Shown in pieces: positions 6,402-32,677 of a stretch of DNA of 64,000 bases. Under the pieces are notes generated by a model. It was not told where the DNA came from, did not search any database, and was given only the letters and a program-made list of their open reading frames with translations. A program made the translations under genes and the position numbers. This DNA is from Robiginitalea sp. (GTDB lineage: Bacteria; Bacteroidota; Bacteroidia; Flavobacteriales; Flavobacteriaceae): contig JAHECA010000003.1 in assembly GCA_024642005.1 (NCBI GenBank), positions 62,001 to 126,000 of the forward strand. The letters run 5' to 3'. The first letter of the stretch is position 1; each line of letters begins with the position of its first letter.

Positions 6402-7460
6402 ATGAGAAAACGCTGCCTTTTCCCGCTAGTACTGTTAGCCGGCCTCACGGCCTTTTCTCAACCAGCAGGGGAGCCAATTCCCCTGGTAAGCGAAATTTCA
6501 CTGGCAGGGCAGTTGCCGGGCACCGTCGGTAAATACTGGCTCCAGGCCGGATCAGACATGTTCGGGAGGCCCATTGTGGTGCCCGTTTTACTGGCCAAGG
6601 GCAGCCTGCCGGGCCCGGTACTGGGCCTAACGGCTGCCATTCACGGAAACGAGCTCAACGGCATACCCCTAATCCAGGAACTTTTCGCCTCACTTGACCC
6701 AACACAACTGCACGGGTCGGTGGTAGCCATCCCGGGGATGAACCCCCTGGGCATGCAGAACGATACCCGCCTGTTCCTTGACGGGGAGGACCTTAACCGG
6801 GTGTTCCCGGGTAAGTCCGACGGCAATAATTCCCAGCAAATGGCCTATGCCCTGGGCAGCAAATTCCTGCCTGGGCTCGATTACCACCTCGACCTGCATA
6901 CGGCCAGTTTTGGCCGCATAAACACCCTGTATGCCCGGGCCGACCTGGAAAGCGAACCCCTCGCGCGCATGGCCCGCTCCCTGGGGGCCGACATCATTTT
7001 GCACAGCAAAGGGGAAGCCACGGCAGGGGCCCGTTCCGACGGCACGCTAAGGGCCATGGCGGCCTCGATGGGGGTACATTCCCTGACCCTGGAAATGGGC
7101 AACCCCCAGGTATACGACCGCGACATGATCGCCCGGGGCCTGCAGGGAGTGCGCAACCTGCTGATTACTCTCGGGCTGCTCGAGGGCACCCCCGTGACCC
7201 TGGGGGAAGCCCTGGAATGCGAGCGATCGTATTGGGTGTATACCGACGCGGGGGGCTTGCTGGAAGTTTTGCCAGGGCTCGGGCAAGTATTGCATAAGGG
7301 CGACCTCATAGGGGTGCTGAAAGACCCGTTCGGGAAGGTTTTGGCCAGGTACAGTGCTCCGGAAGACGGGGTGGTTATCGGCCTCAGCACCAACCCGGCA
7401 GCCATTTCGGGGAGCCGTATTTTGCACCTGGGAATCTTGCGTAAAGCGGGGCGCCCATGA
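6402..7460 (+). CDS. Succinylglutamate desuccinylase/aspartoacylase family zinc deacylase, exported
   Basis: A 352-aa predicted zinc-dependent amide hydrolase of the M14-like AstE/AspA family. The N terminus MRKRCLFPLVLLAGLTAFSQ is a signal peptide. Zinc ligands are seen in IHGNE (His and Glu near residue 86) and in HLDLHTASFG (His). A Glu in LTLEMG could be the catalytic base. A C-terminal beta-rich part follows. The frame is open from 6345, but the ATG at 6402 is chosen because the signal peptide starts there. Its stop overlaps the start of the DUF819 gene by 4 nt (ATGA). The true substrate is unknown. Confidence 0.88.
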   Translation: MRKRCLFPLVLLAGLTAFSQPAGEPIPLVSEISLAGQLPGTVGKYWLQAGSDMFGRPIVVPVLLAKGSLPGPVLGLTAAIHGNELNGIPLIQELFASLDPTQLHGSVVAIPGMNPLGMQNDTRLFLDGEDLNRVFPGKSDGNNSQQMAYALGSKFLPGLDYHLDLHTASFGRINTLYARADLESEPLARMARSLGADIILHSKGEATAGARSDGTLRAMAASMGVHSLTLEMGNPQVYDRDMIARGLQGVRNLLITLGLLEGTPVTLGEALECERSYWVYTDAGGLLEVLPGLGQVLHKGDLIGVLKDPFGKVLARYSAPEDGVVIGLSTNPAAISGSRILHLGILRKAGRP

Positions 7461-32187: not shown

Positions 32188-32261
32188 ATAGAAAAGGGCA
32201 GAGAAACCTCCGCCCTTTTCATCCCAAATCTTACCATAAACTTAACCTACTTATGCTATGG
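32188..32261 (-). ncRNA. Small RNA-like unit 1 (core plus terminator)
   Basis: Predicted RNA of about 74 nt on the minus strand. It begins with a 39-nt core (32261-32223) starting CCATAGCATAAG and ending AAGATTTGGG. The core runs into a terminator hairpin GGGC-GAG/CTC-GCCC with flanking A and T runs (32192-32219). A full promoter precedes it. The core differs from units 2 and 3 by one base. I see no plausible protein; the in-frame ATG in the core reads through the hairpin. Function unknown. Confidence 0.55.
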
Positions 32262-32266
32262 CACGA

Positions 32267-32296
32267 CCAAAGTACTGGGTTTAAGAGAAATGACAA
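32267..32296 (-). promoter_or_regulatory. Promoter of small RNA unit 1
   Basis: Minus strand TTG (32296-32294), 19 nt, TACTTTGG (32274-32267), ending 5 nt before the conserved core. Confidence 0.6.
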
Positions 32297-32372
32297 AGGA
32301 TTTTTAACACTTTTTCGGAAAGGGGGCTTGAGAGCAGTCTGAATTGCCTGCTCATTCAGGGCGGAAGGCAGC

Positions 32373-32445
32373 AAATAAAAAGGCAAGGTTTGCACCTTGC
32401 CTTTTCCCCAAATCTTACCATGAACTTAACCTACTTATGCTATGG
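32373..32445 (-). ncRNA. Small RNA-like unit 2 (core plus terminator)
   Basis: Predicted RNA of about 73 nt. The same 39-nt core (32445-32407) is followed by an unrelated terminator hairpin AAGGCAAGG/CCTTGCCTT with a 6-nt loop and a T run (32377-32405). Promoter upstream with exactly the same geometry as unit 1. The stretch 32297-32372 between units 1 and 2 shows nothing else. Confidence 0.55.
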
Positions 32446-32450
32446 TCTTC

Positions 32451-32480
32451 CAAAAGTACAGGGGCACTTGAAAAGGGCAA
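32451..32480 (-). promoter_or_regulatory. Promoter of small RNA unit 2
   Basis: Minus strand TTG (32480-32478), 19 nt, TACTTTTG (32458-32451): an exact consensus, with a 5-nt gap to the core. Confidence 0.65.
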
Positions 32481-32588
32481 AAGCATTTGGATAAACGTCG
32501 CTTAATTCCGTTGAAATACGCGGTTGGGCAGAACTTCCTACAAAATGAAGGGATGGGAGGTTGTAAGGGGGGGGTGGCAATGGTGGTG

Positions 32589-32663
32589 AAAATAAAAAAG
32601 GTGGAGAAACTCCACCTTTTTTGCCCCAAATCTTACCATGAACTTAACCTACTTATGCTATGG
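32589..32663 (-). ncRNA. Small RNA-like unit 3 (core plus terminator)
   Basis: Predicted RNA of about 75 nt. Core at 32663-32625, identical to unit 2, followed by GGTGGAG/CTCCACC hairpin with a 3-nt loop and TTTTTTATTTT (32594-32622). Its -7 box is TACTTTAG (32677-32670), but no TTG lies at -33, so it may be weaker. The stretch 32481-32588 between units 2 and 3 shows nothing else. Confidence 0.5.
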
Positions 32664-32669
32664 CGAAAA

Positions 32670-32677
32670 CTAAAGTA
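32670..32677 (-). promoter_or_regulatory. Putative -7 box of small RNA unit 3
   Basis: Minus strand TACTTTAG, one base off TAnnTTTG, 6 nt before the core. The expected -33 position reads CGA. Confidence 0.4.

What the first reader, a model, noticed from the sequence alone, without database searches (positions are those of the whole stretch)
32188..32677. Three tandem small-RNA-like units with an invariant 39-nt core and unrelated terminators
Seen in sequence: three direct copies on the minus strand. Each has a TAnnTTTG-like -7 box, a 5-6 nt gap, a 39-nt core (38/39 or 39/39 identical), then a hairpin with T run. Hairpins are GGGC-GAG, AAGGCAAGG and GGTGGAG, sharing nothing in sequence. Predicted lengths are 74, 73 and 75 nt, and units 1 and 2 have TTG at exactly 19 nt from the -7 box. 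Inference: this is a family of small RNAs whose conserved 5' half binds a target or protein, while the 3' half only terminates. It is convergent with sod and lies before purF. I cannot name a known family.
Basis: partly seen in the sequence, partly recalled or inferred. Interest (0 to 1): 0.8.

Follow-up and report, generated by a model that had tools for sequence, protein, structure and literature searches.

The report
Tandem small-RNA genes across Flavobacteriaceae
Three near-identical small-RNA genes sit in a row between two ordinary genes here, the same arrangement recurs in most sampled genomes of a large family of environmental bacteria, and the shared part looks built to pair with the start regions of other messages and perhaps with antagonist RNAs.

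Summary
Observation confirmed: three minus-strand units (promoter-like box, 39-nt core, terminator) at 32192-32677. They are one locus of an sRNA family with no Rfam match at gathering score. A covariance model from it hits 318 of 397 sampled Flavobacteriaceae genomes, 197 of 237 genera, mostly in the order purF > units > sod. The core is not one unstructured block: it is a predicted 5' hairpin, with modest compensatory support, plus an unpaired linker, GAUUUGGGG, almost all that remains in the most diverged members. Arrays mostly follow three promoter/terminator classes in order with one core. Linker-complement sites lie upstream of starts 9 times in sense against 1 in antisense orientation; 4 of those 9 also match another part of the core over 9-10 nt, against 6 of 669 control start regions. 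Two genomes hold short terminator-bearing RNA-like genes antisense to the core: candidate antagonists. Best reading: trans-acting sibling sRNAs pairing with translation starts, analogous to Bacteroides FopS but without its RRM partner. Transcription and targets are untested; no target site recurred between genomes.

The parts
32594..32677 (-). Unit A (first in array): -7 box 32670-32677, RNA about 32664-32594, 5' hairpin 32664-32635, linker AAGATTTGGGG 32634-32624, terminator to 32594
   Evidence: class 'GGCAA'
32377..32481 (-). Unit B (middle): TTTG about 32478-32481 (by eye), -7 box 32451-32458, RNA about 32446-32377, 5' hairpin 32446-32417, linker 32416-32406, terminator to 32377
   Evidence: class 'GGAAA'
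32192..32297 (-). Unit C (last): TTTG about 32294-32297 (by eye), -7 box 32267-32274, RNA about 32262-32192, 5' hairpin 32262-32233 (C->T at 32238), linker 32232-32222 (last base A), terminator to 32192
   Evidence: class T23/'GAYGA' with a strongly conserved promoter region
   Evidence: ORF; synteny query
   Evidence: ORF; synteny query

Best explanation
The three units are tandem genes for about 70-nt trans-acting regulatory RNAs of one Flavobacteriaceae-wide family. Each RNA has a 5' hairpin beginning at or next to its first base, a single-stranded linker (AAGAUUUGGGG) and an intrinsic terminator. The linker nucleates pairing with CCCCAAAUC in the 5' region of target mRNAs. In a subset of targets the loop and 3' arm of the hairpin open and pair with a second stretch at or beside the start codon, which would block translation initiation. 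The three position classes carry different promoter regions but the same effector, so several signals could set the dose of one RNA. Short antisense RNAs in some genomes may titrate it. Shown by computation: gene anatomy, near-invariance of the linker, synteny, excess of paired sites; hairpin conservation with modest covariation. Inferred: transcription, direction of regulation, signals, antagonism.
For: Family and synteny: model hits in 318/397 family genomes. purF upstream on the same strand in 105/120 loci and sod downstream convergent in 92/120; where found, never in another arrangement. Diverged members L388/L389 still lie between purF and sod. Structure: folding z -3.7 to -4.3; hairpin outer stem 98.6% paired, both-sided changes at 4 of 7 pairs (7 cells). 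Linker ATTTGGG 109-110 of 110 rows at each column, kept in four members with rewritten hairpins. Strict terminators 328/332 against 5/332 shuffled. Pairing: 9 sense against 1 antisense linker-complement sites upstream of starts, binomial p 0.011. Second match >=9 nt in 4/9 of those against 6/669 control start regions, Fisher 2.9e-6. Downstream matches >=9 nt: 6 of 147 sites against 0.6 in shuffles and 1 in the upstream control. Duplex energy <=-36: 5 against 0.45 expected. Examples: L415 CTTAACCTA before ATG, L493 CTACTTATG, L406 ATGCTATGG, L503 AACCTACTTA.
Against: No expression data. No start-region site recurs at orthologous genes among the genomes compared. An earlier search with the hairpin-side complement AATCTTACCATGAAC gave 58 non-unit hits (24 for the reversed pattern), by eye only 1-3 at plausible start codons. 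The linker seed was chosen after seeing the alignment. Only 147 non-unit sites, from 203 hits with units included, were read: 45, 36, 30, 30 and 6 from five genomes. Two of the six long matches and two of the five strongest duplexes are tandem copies in L489. At least one of the nine start-region ORFs (L515) looks spurious. Most covariation (97 of 105 cells) is in the terminator; in the 64 closer units the hairpin pairs hardly vary, and pair 17-44 is unpaired in 19 rows. Flavobacteriaceae lack the RRM protein that binds FopS.
Confidence: 0.6

Rival explanations
1. The RNA is a protein-binding decoy or scaffold: an unknown RNA-binding protein recognises GAUUUGGGG between two hairpins, and pairing with mRNAs is incidental.
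For: A near-invariant unpaired motif between two hairpins whose sequences can change is what a protein site would look like; multiple copies suit titration.
Against: Linker-complement sites prefer the sense strand upstream of starts and carry extra complementarity to other core segments; antisense RNA-like genes with terminators exist.
Confidence: 0.18
2. The units are mainly a transcription-insulating element between convergent purF and sod, with terminators in series, and the core has no trans function.
For: Position between purF and sod; nearly every unit ends in a terminator-like hairpin.
Against: Terminators vary while 39 nt outside them hardly do, and units have their own promoter-like box; L316 is a copy with neither purF nor sod beside it.
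Confidence: 0.05
3. The units are direct homologues of Bacteroides FopS (Rfam RF04319), diverged beyond the model's cut-off.
For: Alignment of UUCAUGGUA(UU)AGAUUU; look-alikes in another family of the order (L372-L378); core-shuffle p 0.0037 (mono) and 0.0255 (dinucleotide).
Against: 18.9 bits against a gathering score of 56, one of 4227 families scanned; 5' hairpin here, single-stranded 5' end in FopS; part of the shared segment is the hairpin arm, which diverged members rewrite; no RRM_1 protein in 60/60 family genomes.
Confidence: 0.2
4. The units are a short repeat family, mobile or REP-like, that spread by duplication.
For: Copies are tandem and vary from 1 to 6 per locus; one hybrid unit suggests conversion between copies (L048); a few loci with units have neither neighbour (L089, L092, L130, L144).
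Against: Mostly fixed synteny and position classes; 0 hits in IMG/VR viral contigs for one 21-nt core pattern; no other copy in the own genome at <=3 mismatches.
Confidence: 0.03

Closest known systems
FopS / GibS sRNAs of Bacteroides thetaiotaomicron (Rfam RF04319; PMC11697453: passages and section 8 seen; GibS paper PMC7366714 seen only in a listing)
   Same: Bacteroidota; multicopy; about 70 nt; conserved 5' part plus terminator; pairing beside start codons; a short similar segment
   Different: 18.9 bits here against a cut-off of 56; FopS has a single-stranded 5' end, 14 members and the RRM partner RbpB; here a 5' hairpin, one tandem syntenic array and no RRM_1 protein
Sibling or multicopy sRNAs: LhrC family of Listeria, NgncR_162/163 of Neisseria (search listing and abstract starts only)
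   Same: Several near-identical sRNAs acting together
   Different: No Rfam match at gathering score to any family in the array or in 13 loci; different phyla; here three promoter classes with one core
Rfp18 and other Rfp RNAs of Flavobacterium psychrophilum (PMC9723704, passages seen) and the candidate sRNAs of F. columnare (PMC5395568, passages seen)
   Same: Flavobacterial sRNAs newly described by RNA-seq; the F. columnare ones are reported to have no Rfam match; Rfp18 affects protease mRNAs
   Different: Rfp18 is described as pairing through a third stem-loop; the sequences are not in the passages seen and supplements could not be opened, so identity with one of these RNAs is not excluded

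Membership tests
FopS (RF04319) | Rfam gathering score of 56 bits | tested here: not met
   18.9 bits for unit A; 0 of 60 genomes (own included) with a hit over cut-off
FopS (RF04319) | Single-stranded 5' stretch before the terminator | tested here: not met
   5' hairpin predicted in all three units, modest covariation support
FopS (RF04319) | Partner RRM protein RbpB | tested here: not met
   No RRM_1 in the own genome nor in any of 60 family genomes; 14 of 39 other-family genomes of the order have one. A non-RRM partner is not excluded
FopS (RF04319) | Several paralogous copies per genome | tested here: met
   3 here; 1-6 units per locus among 120 loci
FopS (RF04319) | Pairs near start codons of SusC-like mRNAs | tested here: inconclusive
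   Start-region pairing supported in general; the starts of 30 SusC-model matches in the own genome showed no clear site by eye, without a shuffled control
Tandem sibling sRNAs (as a kind) | Adjacent near-identical sRNA genes, each with promoter and terminator | tested here: met
   (promoter by consensus box only)
Tandem sibling sRNAs (as a kind) | Demonstrated transcripts | not testable with these tools
   No RNA data held
Rfp18 | Sequence identity | not testable with these tools
   Sequence not in the passages seen; supplements not available
Any Rfam 15 family | Match at gathering score | tested here: not met
   window: only a tRNA elsewhere; 13 loci, diverged members and order-level look-alikes: 0

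The most novel reading that the evidence does not exclude
A two-layer, RRM-independent riboregulatory circuit runs across Flavobacteriaceae. One ancient purF-sod array fires the same start-codon-pairing sRNA from three differently controlled promoters to set the output of surface, secretion and envelope genes. Independently arisen antisense RNAs, such as L516 in this genome and the tandem L489 genes in G041, act as lineage-specific sponges that switch it off.
Probability: 0.25. Interest if true: 0.86.

Novelty: new variant of a known kind. Interest (0 to 1): 0.72.

Why it matters
[quoted passage not shown] An sRNA detectable in 318 of 397 sampled genomes, with a largely fixed locus, one effector and several promoters, would be a core regulator missed by annotation. 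Its hairpin, linker seed and candidate antagonists make post-transcriptional control without the FopS partner protein RbpB directly testable.

Tried and rejected
Single-stranded 39-nt seed: not favoured, because folding predicts a 5' hairpin that diverged members keep with other letters. Coding reading of the core: by eye, frames run into the variable terminators. Mobile element: mostly fixed synteny, no viral hit. Anti-start search with the hairpin-side complement: little support. SusC-like starts of the own genome as targets: no clear site; the first attempt misoriented minus-strand loci and was redone, without a shuffled control. Orthologous conservation of linker sites: four cross-genome pairs of related proteins, none with start-region sites on both sides. 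Model hits outside the family: of nine genomes four were fetched (L368-L371; two re-fetched as L384, L385); no purF or sod beside them, sequences unlike members; the other five were not looked at. Extra own-genome near-match L195: between genes, no terminator; judged chance. Viral-contig scans: 0. Papers holding three core strings: 0. One search contains many coding false matches and its totals are not used. An earlier count gave 26 for the reversed-pattern control; the recount is 24.

Full report
Observation. The minus strand holds three units of -7 box, 39-nt core and terminator. Two cores are identical and the third has one C->T. The own genome holds the core only here at up to 3 mismatches. 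The array lies between the 3' end of purF, on the same strand, and convergent sod. Rfam gives no match in the array at gathering score; the only window match is a tRNA elsewhere.

Distribution. With up to 3 mismatches, 23 of 99 genomes hold the core: all 10 of the genus (own included), 13 of 50 others of the family, 0 of 39 outside the family. In those 120 loci purF lies upstream on the same strand in 105 (not found in 15) and sod downstream and convergent in 92 (not found in 28); no other orientation was seen. Many misses are at locus ends, but L089, L092, L130 and L144 show neither gene. These loci contain 332 units with full flanks. They were chosen by an exact 32-mer, so conservation inside it is biased; outside it the block also starts sharply at CC (332 of 332) and ends at GGG (331-332 of 332). 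The base before CC is A 166 times and G 166 times. A strict terminator hairpin follows 328 of 332 units against 5 of 332 shuffled; the looser test passes 332 of 332 but also 147 of 332 shuffled.

Family. A model (R1) built from 64 units, taken from 84 with distinct terminator stems, hits 318 of 397 sampled genomes of the family at E<=0.01, 197 of 237 genera; 79 genomes have no hit. The unnamed family is called Flavobacteriaceae from the titles of named records and recall. In a draw of 296 genomes of the phylum it hits 35: 26 in the family (E<=6.7e-9) and 9 outside (E 0.001-0.042). Four of the nine were fetched and have neither purF nor sod beside them; I count none as members. Of 116 loci checked, some from the same genome, 94 have both neighbours, 12 purF only, 1 sod only and 9 neither; six of the nine are those false hits and their re-fetches, and L316 and L387 are two of the others. 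L316 is a copy away from the locus.

Anatomy. Each unit folds into a 5' hairpin with loop GUAGG, an unpaired linker AAGAUUUGGGG and the terminator, z -3.7 to -4.3. In 64 closer units the hairpin pairs hardly vary, which says nothing either way. On 133 model matches (110 distinct rows) the outer stem is 98.6% paired with both-sided changes at 4 of 7 pairs (7 cells); the apical helix is 93.6% paired with one such cell, and one of its pairs is unpaired in 19 rows. All five whole-structure measures exceed 500 of 500 shuffles and all slid versions, but 97 of the 105 both-sided cells are in the terminator, and the alignment was fitted to the model. Four diverged members (L386-L389) have rewritten hairpins yet keep ATTTGGGG and a terminator; L388 and L389 lie between purF and sod, L386 has purF, L387 shows neither in its short stretch. 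The linker is therefore the most conserved element (columns ATTTGGG 109-110 of 110 rows; one degenerate unit in L046) and the hairpin is conserved chiefly as structure. Within nearer genera the hairpin sequence is also nearly invariant.

Classes. In arrays of more than one unit the first unit has GGCAA after the core in 84 of 94; middle units of longer arrays have GGAAA with C23 in 109 of 119; the last unit has T at core position 23 and GAYGA in 79 of 94. The T23 unit is last in 84 of 85 cases; the exception, L048, contains a hybrid unit. The last class has a strongly conserved promoter region (CACAATACCAGTA..TTTAGT). The core is the same while promoter regions differ.

Relation to FopS. Rfam FopS aligns weakly (18.9 of 56 bits) through UUCAUGGUA/AGAUUU. 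Order-level genomes carry look-alikes with UUUUUCAUAGUAAGAUUUUGGGUUAG plus terminator. Shuffle tests give p 0.0037 (mono) and 0.0255 (dinucleotide) for FopS against the core, 0.002 for the look-alike against the core and 0.0001 for the look-alike against FopS; the look-alikes were themselves found with the FopS model, and FopS is one of 4227 families. RRM_1 proteins are absent from 60 of 60 family genomes and present in 14 of 39 other genomes of the order. I treat FopS as an analogue and possible distant relative, not a family to file this under.

Targets. A first test with the complement of the hairpin side was essentially negative: 88 hits in 10 genomes, 30 of them units, 58 others (24 for the reversed pattern), by eye 1-3 at plausible starts. 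After seeing that the linker is the near-universal part, I searched its complement CCCCAAATC in five genomes: 203 hits, units included; the reversed pattern gave 45, but it is not composition-matched. I could read 147 distinct non-unit sites (45, 36, 30, 30 and 6 per genome). Non-coding sites within 90 nt upstream of an ORF start: 9 sense, 1 antisense. The longest further match of the next 60 nt to the rest of the core complement is >=9 in 6 sites against 0.6 in shuffles and 1 in the upstream control; two of the six are tandem copies in L489. Four of the nine start-region sites carry such a match against 6 of 669 control start regions, Fisher 2.9e-6; window lengths differ somewhat (17-83 against 72 nt), and two of the six controls (L063, L139) look homologous. 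Sites outside long open frames (24) pair more strongly than the other 123, p 0.003. Products behind the nine: a Rieske-type lipoprotein, GldM, an S13 peptidase-like lipoprotein, four secreted or membrane-like proteins judged by eye (no Pfam hit for them), a small hypothetical and one probably spurious ORF. The own-genome gene L523 has its ATGAAC start 17 nt from the first base of CCCCAAATC but was not counted among the nine. No site was shared at start regions between genomes, so individual targets are leads only.

Candidate antagonists. In G041 (L489), downstream of an HflX-like gene, two tandem stretches without an ORF of more than 50 aa, each ending in a terminator by eye, carry CCCCAAATC..CATGAACTTAATC and ACCTACTT, complementary to the core; duplex -39.9 and -37.8 kcal/mol; cofold gain with unit A of the window -30.7 against a shuffled mean of -10.9, sd 3.3, lowest -20.1 in 100. 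In the own genome L516 has a promoter-like box, CCCCAAATCTTACCGT and a terminator, with only short open frames over it; cofold gain -24.4, -19.4 and -17.7 with units A, B and C against a shuffled mean of -10.1, sd 3.2, lowest -20.0 in 100 with unit A, so only unit A lies beyond all shuffles. L396 (G248) carries a 16-nt exact antisense stretch, but inside an open frame of the other strand; L522 (own) a gapped one. None matches Rfam at gathering score. Whether these are transcribed, and sponges or targets, is inference.

Literature. Seen: passages and section 8 of the FopS paper, passages of the F. psychrophilum and F. columnare papers; the rest as search listings. No paper in the library holds three strings of the core. 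Searches on flavobacterial sRNAs and on purF with small RNA listed 4, 1 and 1 papers; the three opened do not describe this locus in the passages seen, the others were not opened.

Changes after checking: two statements were mended (number of G104 sites; a control wrongly called a unit) and the thin hairpin covariation is now stated; confidence in the best explanation went from 0.62 to 0.60 and in the protein-binding rival from 0.17 to 0.18 for that reason.

Noticed in passing
L489 (G041:C1:1454838-1456553), about 660-840 and 960-1140: Two tandem terminator-bearing stretches without long ORFs, antisense to the sRNA core, with a possible third relic downstream; candidate sponge array behind an hflX-like gene.
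   Followed up: partly
L516 (G000:C10:35263-36671), about 680-760: Own-genome short RNA-like gene with a TATTTTTG box, a near-perfect 16-nt antisense of the linker region and a terminator.
   Followed up: partly
L316 (G015:C32:73483-76552); model hits G014:C13, G016:C24:619872, G023:C1:980916, G033:C2:1751404: Additional copies of the sRNA apparently away from the purF-sod array in some genera; only L316 was checked for neighbours.
   Followed up: partly
L372-L378 (G060, G075): An order-level family carries several dispersed FopS-like sRNA genes (UUUUUCAUAGUAAGAUUUUGGGUUAG and variants, plus terminator); these two genomes lack RRM_1 too.
   Followed up: partly
L048 (Eudoraea adriatica), units near 7451 and 7655: A hybrid unit with a last-class promoter and T23 but a middle-class terminator, suggesting conversion or unequal crossing-over between tandem units.
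   Followed up: no
L391 (G248), minus strand, start codon at 1311 of the reversed locus: A start region AAATCTTCATGAACTTAA nearly matches the core complement without the CCCC part; gene resembles an MltG-type protein by eye.
   Followed up: no
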